Shown here one piece after another: positions 4,580 through 11,626 of a DNA stretch of 64,000 nt. Both the position numbers and the translations under genes were made by a program. The notes under the pieces are model-generated. The model was not told the origin of the DNA, searched no databases, and saw only the letters and a program-made list of their open reading frames with translations. This DNA is from Tubulanus polymorphus (taxonomy: Eukaryota; Nemertea; Palaeonemertea; Tubulaniformes; Tubulanidae). Where the stretch lies: positions 7,786,231 through 7,850,230 of the forward strand of contig NC_134033.1 in the NCBI RefSeq assembly GCF_964204645.1, read 5' to 3'. Numbering within the stretch: the first letter of the stretch is position 1; the number at the start of each line of letters is the position of its first letter.

Positions 4580-4583
4580 TTAA

Positions 4584-4597
4584 AGTAGTTCTAGAAT
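4584..4597 (+). repeat. Left terminal inverted repeat with TTAA target site
   Basis: AGTAGTTCTAGAAT directly follows TTAA (4580-4583). It is a perfect 14-bp match to the reverse complement of the right end; identity is lost at base 15. Confidence 0.85.
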
Positions 4598-4732
4598 CTA
4601 AAAATGAAGTTTATGTCATATCATGGCTAAGGGTTTCTTAAGATGATTGGAAAAGAATTAGTGCAAAAAAAAAATTTTTAACAGATTTAGAGAGCTTTTT
4701 CTACTATAGCCTGAATCAAAACATTGCGCCAT

Positions 4733-4764
4733 AGTCACGTGACCTGATGACGTAGTAAATTGAC
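4733..4764 (+). promoter_or_regulatory. Subterminal inverted element upstream of the THAP gene
   Basis: This 32-bp block contains the palindrome GTCACGTGAC (E-box CACGTG) followed by TGATGACGTAG (CRE/ATF-like). It matches the reverse complement of 11430-11461 at 29 of 32 positions. It lies 75 bp before the THAP start codon. The matched copy is immediately upstream of the start codon of the other gene, so a paired promoter element is the simplest reading. Transposase binding is the alternative. Confidence 0.6.
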
Positions 4765-4839
4765 ACGCAGTAGTACTACTGGTTAGTAGACGCTCCATTC
4801 CTACTGTACTACGGCGATCAGTTTTTTAGCGTGTTTATA

Positions 4840-5195
4840 ATGGTAAAGAAATGTGTAGCATACGGTTGTTCTAAAACAAACAAAGACGGAGTATCTCTTC
4901 ATCAATTTCCGAACCCAGAGAAGAATAATGGGAACGATTTAGCAGAATTGAACCGGCAAGTAAAACAAACGCGAGCCGATTGGGAAGGCCCTCCCGGTCA
5001 GTACGGCACTCCGGCTTGGAATTCGTGCGTTTTATGTTCGGATCACTTTACCCCTGACCGTTTTGAGCCTAAAAGCTCAGTTGCCATAGCCCTCAGATAC
5101 AAAGTTAAAAAGTGTATTAAAGGATGGAGCGGTCCCGACTATTTTTAAGCGGAGATCCGACTCCAAAGCTCAGCGTTGTGGTAGCGAGTCGCGAG
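4840..5195 (+). pseudogene. THAP zinc-finger exon with a single-base frameshift
   Basis: The start codon is ATG at 4840 (MVKKCVAYGCSKTNKDGV). Zinc ligands are C5 and C10, then the CSDHF Cys and His. The frame reaches RYKVKK and then runs into a stop at 5146. One base out of frame the sequence reads VLKDGAVPTIFKRR, the canonical THAP C-terminal AVPTIF motif. Removing one A from the A5 run at 5107-5111 would reconcile the two. The exon ends GAG/GTTAGT at 5195. The run length could also be a consensus error. Confidence 0.8.
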
Positions 5196-5449
5196 GTTAG
5201 TATTGACATTTTGTAAATCCGAGATGTATATTTACTGTGATTGGTATGATTTATTTGTTTTATTGACGCTTTGAACGCACATGTTGACATCTGTCAAACT
5301 TGATCAATTCAATTTCAATTCAGTATTTTCAGGCCTAATTGCTTGATTCAGTCGTGCTGCATGTCTTATCTGAGCGTTTTATACATATCAGCGCTAATTT
5401 GTCTTTTAATCAGCTCATCAACTCGCTGTTGGCTGAAGAAAATCAAGCA

Positions 5450-6863
5450 AGTGTATGGAAGGCGAAAACCACCAAAACATGGTTATATGTCATTCGATAA
5501 TAAAAAGGTTTAAATTGATGATGAAAACATATAAAAAGGTGATGAAAACAAATAAAAAGGTGATAAAAACATGAAAAACTGTCAAAAGGCGATAAAAGGT
5601 CGATCGATGGTATTTCATCATATTTTCATATTTTATCACCTTTTTATCTTTTACCACCTTTTCATTATCTTTCAACAGCAACCATTCGATGATACGAATG
5701 CCATCTATCGGCATAGAGACGCGTCAATCCATCTATTTCAGGCGAATAGCAGATAGGACAACTCTAACAAATGCGTAATAATAAGTGTCGGGTAGCCTAA
5801 ATCAACTTAGTCGAGAAATCGTTGAATGCGCGGGCGTCATGACATGTGTATTTGTATAGGTTTTATTGCACTTTTGGGTTCAGGTCCAGGAGAAAATTCA
5901 TATTTACATGAACTTTGATAATGCCAGTTGCACTAGTTCAGTCGTGCGTGCTACGGGCAATAATCTCGATTACTCGGGAAATGTCTTCTGACAATTTGTC
6001 GAGACTAAGTTAAGCTAAGGCTCGAATCCAGAATGTCAAATAGCAAATGATCTTAAATTTTCAGCAACACCTTCACTTGTTTGCTGACAAGCGAATTGTC
6101 CAAATAAATTGATCAATTCTATTCATAAATCATTTTGCTCGTTAATCAATAAGGATAATGAATTTTTCGCTTTGTCAGTTTTAGAAAGGATTACTTAGTA
6201 TCTTTCCTGATAAGAGTCATTCATGAATTGCCAAAATTTTATGAATATGTGATACATAAAATTCTCACAACAGTCTAATAAGAGTAAGTAAGGCATCACA
6301 ATTGTTGACGCAAAGTTTTTCTTAAGAAAAATTAATAAGCATTTTCTTATTAATATTAAAGGTACCCCGAGAAGTCATTGAATGGAACAAAAATGCCTCA
6401 GAATCCAAGCATTCTAGATAAATTTACAAAAAAATGATCAAAATTCATTAGGAAATACATGTAAATAAGGGACTCGAACATGATCATATTCAATTTGTTC
6501 GGGATTCGAAGATTATAGCGCGACAACAGAGTGTGGAGTAGAGACATTGGAAATCATATCTACTTTTTACCAGAAATAGATGGATTGATAGCCTCTATAT
6601 GCACAGATGGCGTTAGTAGTATCATCGAATGGTTGCTATTGGCAACCGTTGAAAGATAATTAATAGGTGGTAAAAGATGAAAAGGTGATAAAATATGAAA
6701 ATATGATAAAATACCATCAATTGACCTTCACCTTTTGACAGGTTTTCATGTTTTCGTTTTACATGTTTTCACTATCTTTTTGTATGTTTTCATCATCTAT
6801 TTAAACCTTTTGATTATCGAATGACATACAACCATGTTTTGGTGGCTTTCGCCTTCCATACAA
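5450..6863. mobile_element. Long inverted-repeat element inside the transposase gene
   Basis: Arms of about 300 bp (5450-5752 and 6572-6863) are reverse complements at high identity. They begin TGTATGGAAGGCGAAA and end TTTCGCCTTCCATACA. The middle is about 820 bp with no coding sequence. Both arms are rich in AAAAGGTGATAAAA-type repeats. The sequence left of it (AAAATCAAGCAAG) and right of it (AGTGACACAACAAC) reads as one open frame if joined, so it may sit in exon 2 rather than in an intron. It is likely a foldback or MITE-like element; a short AG or CAAG duplication is possible. Confidence 0.65.
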
Positions 6864-7973
6864 GTGACACAACAACAACAAACCAAGAAATCTCTCCTAT
6901 GCCTATTGATGACTGCTTTGATGATACTCCTCCACCATGTCCAAACACTGCTGATTTTTCAACCCAAGTCAATTTGAAACCCGTCAAGTCAAAGATTTAC
7001 AAAAGAAGTAAAGGTAGGTTTCATAATAGGTAATTAAATTTCAATTTTTATGACCCAGGCCTAGGCAATAGCCTATTCAACACTCAACCGTTACTTTTAA
7101 TTCAAGGTTCAACAGCAAAGCCGCGAATTAGAGACGTGATGACTCAGACACGAGGTTCACTGACTAACTCATGCGATCAAAGTTTTGTCTCTGTCCAGGA
7201 CTATTTGGACGATTTTTCTGATATCGACGATGACCCTGAATGTGATTTCATGAGCCAGGATCCCGATTATCGACCGAGCACTGATGATGAACAAGATGAA
7301 GTGTAAGTTGGTCATTGTTTTTTTCTAGTTCATTTTAACTTGACGTGGTCAATACCGTATGGTATTATGTATCATTTTAGAGACGAGATTGCTGTAGGAC
7401 CCTGTAGTAGTAAAGGCGAAAAAATGTATCTCGTTAGTGAAAGTCATCTGCTGTCACTATTCAAACAATGTCCTATGTGTTTAACAGAGTCAGAACACAG
7501 GATTAGTATCAACGGTACTGCGATAACGATTTTTCAAGAATGCCAATCAGGTTTTTGCGGCTATACAAGGACATGGTCAAGCCAGCCGACTATAGGCAAT
7601 ATAAAAGCAGGCAACATAACCCTGAGCGCTGCTTTTCTACTTGCGGGACTGTCACCTGCTAAAGCACTAAGATTTTTAAATCATATAAATGTGCAGAATA
7701 TTTCATATGACACCTACATGAAACATCAGGCCAAATATCTAATTCCGTCCGTAAATGATGTCATGACAGTCGAACACGCTGAATTCGTGAATGAAATCGC
7801 TCACGATGGAAATGGTGGTATCATGGCATTCGGTGATGGTCGAGCAAGTAGTCCTGGTAAGTTTCTTATCTTTACGTTTGGACAAATAACATTCTATTGA
7901 AATAATATGATATTATTAACATATGTATACCAACAATTTTTAGGTCATTGCCATGGAAAAAGAAGGCCTTACT

Positions 7974-7976
7974 TGA
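7974..7976 (+). other. In-frame stop in the transposase exon
   Basis: In exon 7944-8112 the frame reads MEKEGLT-stop-ALAQLDAEG and stays open to TWHVDK. The family usually has a basic residue at the stop position. TGA is one C-to-T change from CGA, so CpG decay is a simple explanation. Confidence 0.75.
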
Positions 7977-8693
7977 GCCCTAGCCCAATTGGATGCGGAG
8001 GGGATTAAAATAAAGGAACTGGTAACCGACAGGCACGTGTCGATACGGAAAATGATCAGGGAACAACATCCAACTATCAGACACAGTGTCGATACATGGC
8101 ACGTTGATAAAGGTACGAAATTATCTTAGATAAAGTGAATATGGTAGATATCAGGTTAATAACCAGTAAAGTAATTTTTTAAGGAATGAGTAAGAAACTG
8201 ACTGCTCTTGGCCAGGAAAGAGATTATGAGCTTGTCAAAAAATGGAAACCAGCAATTTCTAAACACCTGTACTGGTGTGTGAATAAGGGGAATGGAAACG
8301 CTGATGTGTCTGTGGCAGCATGGAAAGCCCTCGAGAATCATGTGATTAACATTCACAATCATTATGACCCGGACTTCGATAGATGTTTGCATGGTGAGAT
8401 AGAGGAAAGAGAATGGTTTAAACCTAGTAAGTAATAATAAGCAGTTTGGCTTGTATCAATGCATGTGGAATTCTGATCAACTGTTAAATTTGCAGTCTAT
8501 TTCAGAATAATTGATGGATCACAATCCAAAACATAATAGGTAACATGTATCATATCAGACTTGTTTACATATATTTATGTCATACATTATACGGTAACAT
8601 GTATCATATCAGACTTGTATCTATGTCTTACGGCTTCTGGTGTTTGTCTACTCTCACTCTTTTTTAACCTGAATCTTACTATTGTATGTGTGC

Positions 8694-9135
8694 TATCAGT
8701 ATAATGCTTTTTGATAATCTTGCTACATATAACTTAATTTCTCAAGAATTTTATCATCTGTTCTGTGATGTGTTACTACACTGACTACACTATATATGGT
8801 TTTTACCATGCACTGGGCTACAAAATTTGAAAACATTATGCTAGTGAGATGAAATATTTTAATTGCAGCGTCTAAGGCTTACACAAAGTTAAAAGGAATA
8901 GCCTTCTCGACCAATATCAGTATAATGCTTTTTGATAATCTTGCTACATATAACTTAATTTCTCAAGAATTTTATCATCTGTTCTGTGATGTGTTACTAC
9001 ACTGACTACACTATATATGGTTTTTACCATGCACTGGGCTACAAAATTTGAAAACATTATGCTAGTGAGATGAAATATTTTAATTGCAGCGTCTAAGGCT
9101 TACACAAAGTTAAAAGGAATAGCCTTCTCGACCAA
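8694..9135 (+). repeat. Tandem duplication of 221 bp over a transposase splice acceptor
   Basis: 8694-8914 and 8915-9135 are essentially identical. The unit carries the 3' part of an intron, its AATTGCAG acceptor and the first 45 bp of the exon. A 3-bp overlap (TAT) sits at the junction. The second acceptor (exon from 9090) restores the normal exon, so splicing could skip the first copy. Confidence 0.9.
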
Positions 9136-9836
9136 TATGATGAAAGATGTCAGACAGCTGACACCTAATAGCATTACATCTGGAGGCGAATCTTCTTTCA
9201 TTATTGAATCATATGGCTCCCAAGATGCTACATTTCAGCTATCACTGTATTCGTGCTAGGTAAGTAACAACTATGGAATAAATAATGAGAAAGATTATTG
9301 GATATCATTGGTGTGACGTGTAAATAGTACAAATACTGGTAAAATTGTGATGTTGATTAAATATAGGTATCAAAAAGCTGTGTTACATCACAATGAAAAT
9401 TCAAATAGGGCTCAATCCAAGACCAAGGATGGTGATGACGGGTATAATATTGTTTACCCAAAGAACAAGAAAGGCAGCCACACACTTTGTAAAGTGTTTG
9501 AAAAGGCCACATATGGTAAAGTCTAATAGAAATGCAGTGTTAATTGCCATGATGGAAAGAAATGATAGATTTATACTGTTTTTCCCATTGTAGGATATGC
9601 CACTAGGCTAATGAATGCTGTCTACGAGAGGGTCTTGAGTGACAACAAATATTTAGAAGATTCGTCAAAGCCACCACCGTTGACCAGCTCTGTTAATAAA
9701 GTATCGAAAGAGGAGGCCATCAAGCTGCATAAATCGAGATTTGTTGACAAATGAAACAAATCATGAGCAATAATGCTGCATTATAATTGACCTGTAGTTT
9801 ATTTGTACATATATACAGTTATTTACACATATAACG

Positions 9837-11425
9837 TCATTTTAGATGAGGGAGCTTGAATCCCTTATAACTGTTACTGCCATCCGGGAATGAACTTCGG
9901 ATTTTTGAGACAGAACATGATGGAATCGCAATTCGGTTTCCTTTCCCTAACCTTTCATGTATCCACTCGGTGAATTGTCGGTAACTGGTAAAGCGATATT
10001 TCCTGAAAGTAAATTTGTATATGTGTTCAACATATAATTCCTAAACAGATACTGGTAAGTAAAATAATATTTTATTTGTTGAACTGTCTAATATTAGATA
10101 AACTAAACTGATATGATGAGTAATATTGTACATATTTTATGATTTATCAGAGCGGTGAAAATAGAATCTATGTTTAATACTGATTTACTCACTCTGGTTG
10201 TGATTGGTTAGGTTCTATGTAGTCTGTTTTCTTGTAATGTTGGTATCCAAGTTCCAGAGCCCAAGGATCGAGGCATACACCATAAAAACTTGGATAATCC
10301 ACGAAGCATTTTAGTTCTACATTATTTTCCGAGGCGTGCTGCTCCATCTTATAGGCTACCTTATTCAATTCCTGACAGCAACCACATTCATCTGGTGTAC
10401 TCATGGCGGTGCAGTTGGTGCAGGTACACCTGAAGAAAATACACATTTATAAATGGTTCAATTAAATTAATATGTTATATTGAAAATGTATTTCGAAGAA
10501 AAATTGTGTTTTCTATGGTATAAAAACATTGTTTTGCATTTTATATTTCTATCATTCCTATCTTAATAAAAAATAAAACATTATTAAAGATTCATTAAGA
10601 CCAGGATTTATCAAGTTTTGTTATGATTTACCAGTCATTGTTGTCAACTCTATAGGCATACTCGTGTTCCTCGGATTCTTGGTTTTCATTTTGGGTAGCA
10701 GGATTTGCCAAGGGTTCCAATGCATAAGGGTCGAGCTCGTTTAAGTCTATGGAGTCATCACTGACATCTGCAAATGAGAAATGAAAAGCTGATAAGGCTA
10801 AGTGCCAACTGTCCATTCGGTTTTAGGTTGATAGTCATAAACCATCCGATAGGCCTAATACCAATTATTAGGTTAGGCCTATTCAAGTTCAAGTGGCCAA
10901 GACCTCTATTACAGAGCGTAATAGCATCTTTTGAGACTATAATTGTATCTTAAAGTGATGACAAGTCGCAATGAACTTACAAACGTCACTTTATACCAGG
11001 AATAAAATGAATTTAAATTTGTGTTTGGTGACGGGTCGTATTAGAAACCGAGTGAGTCCACCCCTTCAATGCACGAAAACCGAGTTTAACAAGTGCCAAT
11101 ACTTATGAATATGATTAATATTTATGCCTACCCGAATGCTGCTGTAAATATTGTTGTATACCGTGGTTATAAGTACAGTGAGAGTCGGCGATGGCTGACG
11201 CACGGTGCCGGATCGAGTCTGATTGTATTAGCGACTCACTTCGAAGCAGCATTCAGCTTTAACACGATCATTGATATGGCCGAGATGTGTCAATTATCAT
11301 AAAATCACATTGATTGATTCACCTCTGCTGGAAAATGACTCGTTGTCGTTTTCAGTTACATTTTCCTCCGGATAATTGCTGTCAGAATCGCTCAATTCAT
11401 GTGTGTTTACACTGGATGCTGCCAT
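9837..11425 (-). CDS. P2X7 cytoplasmic-tail-like protein, 213 aa, four exons, intact
   Basis: Exons: 11425-11323, 10767-10632, 10429-10193 and 10002-9837, phases 1, 2 and 2, all with consensus GT-AG. Coding length is 642 nt with one stop at the end. Residues 1-80 are acidic and Ser/Asn-rich (MAASSVNTHELSDSDSNY), then the domain starts W-CTCTNC, CGCCQEL, VDYPSFYGVCLDPWAL, TSYRQFTEWI, IPSCSVSKIRSSFP and YKGFKLP. This cysteine pattern and the terminal IPSC..S.IR..FP...Y.GFK.P match the zinc-binding C-terminal domain of vertebrate P2X7. No transmembrane channel part is present. Free-standing relatives are common in invertebrates. It is convergent with the transposase, its stop 82 bp away, and shares its promoter-proximal repeat. 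Function unknown; metal or nucleotide binding is plausible from the domain. It lacks the lesions of the neighbouring gene. Confidence 0.85.
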
Positions 11426-11429
11426 GTTT

Positions 11430-11461
11430 GTCAATTTGCTACGTCATCCAGTCACGTGACT
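11430..11461 (-). promoter_or_regulatory. Subterminal inverted element upstream of the P2X7-tail-like gene
   Basis: Reverse-orientation partner of 4733-4764, with the same GTCACGTGAC palindrome and GATGACGTAG. It ends only 4 bp before the start codon at 11425, so the mRNA leader must begin within or just outside it. Confidence 0.6.
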
Positions 11462-11608
11462 GCTAATCAGAATTTCAAGGAAGAGGTTCTCGGAAAGTCG
11501 ATTTAAATGCTCATATACAAGATTGAAATGAACGATATGATTATTTTAAACATTCTCATATTAAAAGAATACCATTATAGTTTACAGTTACCGACAGTTT
11601 GCTATAAC

Positions 11609-11622
11609 ATTCTAGAACTACT
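11609..11622 (-). repeat. Right terminal inverted repeat with TTAA target site
   Basis: ATTCTAGAACTACT is followed by TTAA (11623-11626) and then by the resumed dispersed repeat. Confidence 0.85.
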
Positions 11623-11626
11623 TTAA

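What the first reader, a model, noticed from the sequence alone, without database searches (positions are those of the whole stretch)
4584..11622. A TTAA-flanked transposon carries a P2X7-tail-like gene beside its THAP transposase
Perfect 14-bp termini, TTAA on both sides and an interrupted dispersed repeat prove a single 7039-bp insertion. Inside it two convergent, spliced genes fill the element: a Kolobok-like THAP-DDE transposase and a free-standing copy of the cysteine-rich C-terminal domain known from vertebrate P2X7. I do not know of a description of this domain as transposon cargo. If general, it would explain why P2X7-tail-like genes are numerous and scattered in invertebrates, and it offers a mobile source for the P2X7 tail itself.
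Basis: partly seen in the sequence, partly recalled or inferred. Interest (0 to 1): 0.92.

Follow-up and report, generated by a model that had tools for sequence, protein, structure and literature searches.

The report
Kolobok transposon carrying P2X7-tail gene
A ribbon-worm jumping gene carries, beside its own transposase, a free-standing copy of the tail domain known from the human P2X7 ion channel; this pairing was described in 2022, and here it is found again in many copies across one genome.

Summary
Window 4584-11622 is one 7,039-bp insertion with perfect 14-bp inverted ends, TTAA on both sides and an empty-site relative. It holds a THAP-DDE transposase gene and, convergent to it, an intact four-exon, 213-residue P2X7-tail gene. 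The host is the nemertean Tubulanus polymorphus. The main claim is already in print: Kojima & Bao 2022 (PMC9587614) state that the Kol0 group of Kolobok transposons encodes a transposase plus KolX, that KolX is the P2X7 ballast domain, and that P2X7 arose by fusion with it. Of 68 KolX loci found here, 48 lie within 10 kb of a Kolobok transposase exon, all 48 convergent (jitter control: mean 1.8). A family of nearly identical copies carries both genes between TTAA and 14-bp ends. KolX and transposase diverge together (r 0.70, 0 of 5,000 permutations), and KolX differs far less at nonsynonymous than synonymous sites between families. The window's own transposase is broken. KolX is best read as a conserved accessory protein of the transposon, not chance cargo; what it does is unknown. 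Part of the P2X7 guanine-nucleotide site is conserved in KolX, which makes a cofactor role testable.

The parts
4580..4583 (.). left TTAA target-site copy
4584..4597 (+). left 14-bp terminal inverted repeat
4840..5145 (+). transposase THAP exon (open from ATG 4840; splice donor not fixed)
5452..6862 (.). nested inverted-repeat element inside the transposase gene (arms of 106 and 81 nt, 91-93% complementary)
7381..7856 (+). transposase exon with first catalytic-type Asp (GDGR at 7832)
7943..8111 (+). transposase exon with second Asp (8028) and DxxH (8091); carries the deletion joint and TGA 7974-7976; exon ends approximate
8694..9135 (+). perfect 221-bp tandem duplication within the transposase gene
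9188..9190 (+). candidate catalytic Glu of the transposase
   Evidence: position by eye against the A3 consensus
9837..10002 (-). KolX (P2X7-tail gene) exon 4, with stop codon
10193..10429 (-). KolX exon 3, cysteine-rich part
10632..10767 (-). KolX exon 2, acidic part
11323..11425 (-). KolX exon 1, with ATG
11609..11622 (-). right 14-bp terminal inverted repeat
11623..11626 (.). right TTAA target-site copy

Best explanation
It is one copy, with a broken transposase, of a Kol0-group Kolobok cut-and-paste DNA transposon. Shown: it inserted at TTAA. Shown by sequence and by models of relatives: the element class encodes a THAP plus RNase-H DDE transposase and a separate cysteine-rich protein, KolX, with the P2X7 ballast fold. 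Inferred: the transposase binds the ends, excises and reinserts at TTAA, and KolX is a conserved accessory protein of transposition or of its regulation, not a chance passenger. P2X7-tail genes in this worm are mostly genes of this transposon or its remains. The confidence is for identity and long co-inheritance; for the role of KolX I hold about 0.6 that it helps transposition and 0.3 that it protects or represses.
Against: 20 of 68 KolX loci have no transposase exon within 10 kb and 21 of 68 transposase loci no KolX; 13 of the 20 are unexplained. Other Kolobok lineages encode other accessory proteins in place of KolX (PMC9587614), so KolX is not needed for Kolobok chemistry as such. No expression or activity data. 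The models are of relatives (KolX P0005 of Tubulanus, transposase P0131 of Saccostrea), not of the window's own proteins. Placement in the Kol0 tree was not tested.
Confidence: 0.9

Rival explanations
1. Host gene captured once: the P2X7-tail gene is a worm gene that this transposon picked up by chance.
For: The window transposase is broken while KolX is intact. Such genes are annotated in this worm as 'P2X purinoceptor 7-like' or uncharacterized proteins.
Against: Same convergent order in 48 loci; co-divergence with the transposase across 14 families; nearly identical mobile copies contain it; published as a Kol0 gene in other animals.
Confidence: 0.03
2. KolX does not help transposition but protects the element, for example against host silencing, or represses the transposase.
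For: Kolobok lineages without KolX exist. Three of the 29 paired copies of the young family keep KolX while lacking a matched DDE exon; one of these has lost the DDE stretch by deletion (C8:2651252).
Against: No test here separates this from a helping factor; both predict selection and co-divergence.
Confidence: 0.3
3. The unlinked KolX loci are domesticated host genes, as proposed for zebrafish Nanor.
For: 20 of 68 KolX loci without a transposase exon within 10 kb. Nanor precedent.
Against: 4 of the 20 belong to the young mobile family and 3 more have a convergent transposase exon 14-22 kb away. No orthologues or expression were tested for the other 13.
Confidence: 0.1

Closest known systems
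Kolobok DNA transposons, Kol0 group (Kolobok-1_XT type)
   Same: TTAA target sites, RR...YY ends, DDE transposase, separate KolX gene with P2X7 ballast fold (PMC9587614)
   Different: Families in a nemertean; transposase of this copy broken; convergent order and co-divergence measured here. The passages I read give no such counts; the paper's supplement was not seen.
P2X7 receptor C-terminal ballast domain (Pfam PF20478)
   Different: Not joined to a P2X channel; Arg574 absent in 123 of 123 rows; His547 is Phe in the window
Nanor / nanor-like proteins
   Same: Short protein with the ballast domain; said to be domesticated KolX (PMC9587614)
   Different: Described as fish genes without known transposon ends
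P element transposase
   Same: THAP plus DDE in RNase H fold; Foldseek E 1.3e-3 to the model of a Kolobok relative; needs GTP (PMC7776569 passages)
   Different: Carries its own GTP-binding insertion; no KolX partner is mentioned in the passages read

Membership tests
Kolobok superfamily | TTAA target-site duplication | tested here: met
   also other copies
Kolobok superfamily | termini 5'-RR ... YY-3' | tested here: met
   AG...CT; definition from PMC9587614 Background
Kolobok superfamily | DDD/E transposase with C/DxxH between second D and E | tested here: met
   Asp 7835, Asp 8028, DTWH 8091, Glu 9188, though the gene is broken in this copy
Kolobok superfamily | THAP domain | tested here: met
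   Pfam THAP 32.3 bits, cutoff 23.9; listed as a usual motif in PMC6004289 (passages)
Kolobok superfamily | H2CH putative zinc finger | not tested
   named in PMC6004289
Kol0 group | second gene KolX with ballast fold | tested here: met
   (model of a relative)
Kol0 group | placement in the transposase tree | not tested
   no reference set of Kolobok lineages was used
P2RX7_C (PF20478) | score above curated cutoff | tested here: met
   51.2 bits, cutoff 23.5
P2X7 ballast domain | zinc-coordinating cysteines | tested here: inconclusive
   Cys at 498, 499, 506, 572 in the window; rat Cys573 is Ser; the first cysteines lie outside the aligned rat segment
P2X7 ballast domain | guanosine site R546 H547 R574 R578 K583 of rat P2X7 | tested here: not met
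   Only in part: R546 116/123, H547 115/123, R578 120/123, R574 0/123, another residue than K at 583 in at least 120/123; window R546 and R578 only
P element superfamily | GTP-binding insertion in the transposase | tested here: inconclusive
   weak overall match to P element, not among the 50 rows; the insertion was not compared by itself

The most novel reading that the evidence does not exclude
KolX hands a guanine nucleotide to the Kolobok transpososome in trans, doing as a separate protein what the built-in GTP-binding domain does in P element transposase, where GTP positions the transposon's end. If so, the guanine nucleotide in the P2X7 tail is a relic of a transposition cofactor. Part of the site (Arg546, His547, Arg578) is kept in most KolX-type proteins seen; Arg574 is not, nor, in nearly all rows, Lys583.
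Probability: 0.1. Interest if true: 0.8.

Novelty: new member of a known kind. Interest (0 to 1): 0.36.

Why it matters
It shows that in a nemertean, a phylum not named for the Kol0 group in the passages I read, the P2X7-tail gene travels with a Kolobok transposase in most places where it occurs, in one family with nearly identical and so probably recently moved copies. Genes annotated 'P2X purinoceptor 7-like' in invertebrates should be checked for transposon ends before they are taken as receptors. Rump et al. 2020 read two markers linked to such genes across animals as ancestral synteny (PMC7016195 passages); co-mobile transposon genes are a possible alternative that I could not check. The guanine-nucleotide site of P2X7, listed among sites 'with unknown ...' in the start of an abstract (PMC9859053, listing), becomes testable from the transposon side.

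Tried and rejected
Single chance capture: rejected. A virus as carrier: a scan of viral contigs with the KolX alignment gave 37 pattern matches and no confirmed relative. dN/dS by Nei-Gojobori between families: mostly saturated; only one KolX pair was usable (L013/L017, 0.10) and five transposase pairs (0.19-0.71), so I used raw pN and pS. Among ten near-identical recent KolX copies, pooled pairwise differences were 63 per 14,477 nonsynonymous and 25 per 3,613 synonymous sites, i.e. weak or no selection after insertion. The two 1.4-kb same-ended elements that I read (of 17 such pairs) are not simple deletion copies: beyond the ends they match the full element at only 73-81%. PDB sequence search with the transposase profile gave E 0.17 at best. 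Foldseek listed no significant match of the KolX model besides P2X7, which is no proof of absence. Literature on 'P2X purinoceptor 7-like' expansions and on Tubulanus transposons: nothing to the point among the rows listed (12 of 566 papers; 6 of 5,563).

Choices behind the counts: the transposase list is all 56 rows plus 40 stretches that I merged by hand, whose last matches were not listed. The limit was set at 10.5 kb after a first pass at 10 kb, which alone gave 36 of 68; the farthest accepted pair is 9,978 bases apart. One search used 25 of the 48 linked pairs, those whose DNA I held, collapsed to 14 by transposase distance. One search used 9 KolX families with the domain in one exon and 12 of 15 transposase representatives. 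'Matched' means present in the lists, of which the first 100 of 144 ends were listed. The 122 proteins are 2 and the 120 listed of 294; they were found through shared 5-residue words, which favours conserved motifs such as that around Arg546.
Full report
WHAT WAS CHECKED. The window lies in contig C9 of a 268-Mb genome. Proteins named Tubulanus polymorphus sit on contigs of 14,301,023, 27,807,848, 21,623,276, 27,379,721 and 31,900,244 bases, exactly the lengths of C10, C3, C7, C4 and C2 of this genome, so the host is that palaeonemertean ribbon worm. The flanks joined over one TTAA are found contiguous in another copy of the dispersed repeat (474 bp, 89.7%; alignment through the joint), which is the empty site.

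THE GENES. Plus strand: a THAP exon from ATG 4840 (Pfam E 1.7e-7), then exons with GDGR at 7832, Asp 8028, DTWH at 8091 and a Glu at 9188. A Pfam Mutator match below cutoff (23.6 bits, cutoff 26.5) covers the first-Asp exon. The gene cannot make a full transposase: relatives L040, L042 and L043 have an exon beginning GHTAKYG and a later one with SNEV...AMEKEGLIR, whereas the window joins GH to AMEKEGL in another frame and has TGA at 7974-7976; a 221-bp stretch is perfectly duplicated at 8694-9135. Minus strand: four exons, 11425-11323, 10767-10632, 10429-10193 and 10002-9837, all borders GT-AG, give 213 residues without a stop; a 209-residue version scores 51.2 bits against P2RX7_C (cutoff 23.5). 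A nested inverted-repeat element lies at 5452-6862.

IS THE PAIRING GENERAL? A KolX query found 80 stretches, which merge to 68 loci. Two transposase queries merge to 68 loci. Of the 68 KolX loci, 48 have a transposase exon within 10 kb (41 within 3 kb, median 1.9 kb), and all 48 are convergent. Moving each transposase by up to 1 Mb at random gave a mean of 1.8 and at most 6 in 500 trials. Twenty KolX loci and 21 transposase loci had no partner. Counts of repeats are lower bounds by the tool's own statement. Of the 20, four are copies of the young family and three have a convergent transposase exon 14-22 kb off; the other thirteen are unexplained.

THE ELEMENTS. Another family, with ends AGGGTAACTGACAC, has a copy of 4,940 bp at C1:14225017-14229964 with both genes and others of 5,454-5,651 bp. 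Gene-bearing copies match the C1 copy at 99.36-99.77%, and TTAA plus end occurs 144 times, control 0. Among 29 neighbouring pairs of ends under 9 kb apart in the 100 ends listed, 6 hold KolX and a matched DDE exon, 3 KolX without a matched DDE exon, 0 the reverse and 20 neither. In one of the three the DDE stretch is deleted while flanking transposase sequence remains (C8:2651252). Eleven KolX-side ends with TTAA were seen in the loci held, in ten different flanks; two copies on C8 share one.

DO THE TWO GENES BELONG TOGETHER? For 25 of the 48 linked pairs, collapsed to 14 families, protein distances of KolX and transposase correlate with r 0.695; 0 of 5,000 permutations reach it. Between 9 KolX families pN is 0.28 and pS 0.80, with pN below pS in 36 of 36 pairs; for 12 transposase cores 0.38 and 0.83, 66 of 66. 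Recent copies differ almost neutrally. Constraint between families with relaxation among copies is what a transposon gene should show.

PRIOR WORK. Kojima & Bao 2022, Mobile DNA 13:24 (PMC9587614; abstract, Background and search passages read; supplement not seen) state that the Kol0 group encodes KolX beside the transposase, that KolX has the ballast fold of P2X7, that P2X7 arose by fusion of a P2X4-like gene with KolX, and that Nanor is likely a domesticated KolX. A search for 'KolX' found this paper alone in the library. Of two wider searches, the listed rows (15 of 196; 20 of 318) hold no other paper on it. The library lacks most subscription journals. So the pairing and the origin claim are known.

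MECHANISM. Shown: insertion at TTAA, gene content, co-inheritance, the mark of selection. Inferred from family knowledge: cut-and-paste by the THAP-DDE transposase. Inferred and weaker: KolX helps transposition (about 0.6) or protects or represses (about 0.3). P element transposase needs GTP to pair, cleave and join its ends (PMC7776569 passages), and KolX keeps part of a guanine-nucleotide site, hence the novel case at 0.1. Against it: two of five contact residues are missing in nearly all rows, a third in the window copy, and Kolobok lineages without KolX exist.

Noticed in passing
1374-1970: A 589-bp element with perfect 14-bp inverted ends CCCTTTCGCTACGT and TTAA on both sides; on the minus strand it keeps a 50-residue open frame, acidic in part, that looks like the start of a piggyBac transposase (likeness recalled, not searched). 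Ends.
   Followed up: partly
5452-6862: Foldback-like element with 106- and 81-nt arms inside the Kolobok element.
   Followed up: partly
8694-9135: Perfect 221-bp tandem duplication inside the transposase gene; being identical it is probably recent.
   Followed up: yes
L037 (C1:17451020-17454385), KolX at 1501-1866: Next to this KolX locus lie open frames that resemble a Polinton integrase and packaging ATPase (resemblance recalled, not searched). Observed only.
   Followed up: no
P0121 (Nymphon striatum, 311 aa): A predicted sea-spider protein in which the KolX domain is split by a long stretch that looks like a piggyBac transposase start (recalled), perhaps a nested insertion or a gene-model error. 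Kojima & Bao mention piggyBac families with a KolX-like protein.
   Followed up: no
L087 and L088 (C2:2445600, C4:2062380): 1.43-kb elements with the same 14-bp ends and TTAA as the young Kolobok family but only 73-81% similar beyond the ends; 17 of the 29 pairs have this size, two were read.
   Followed up: partly
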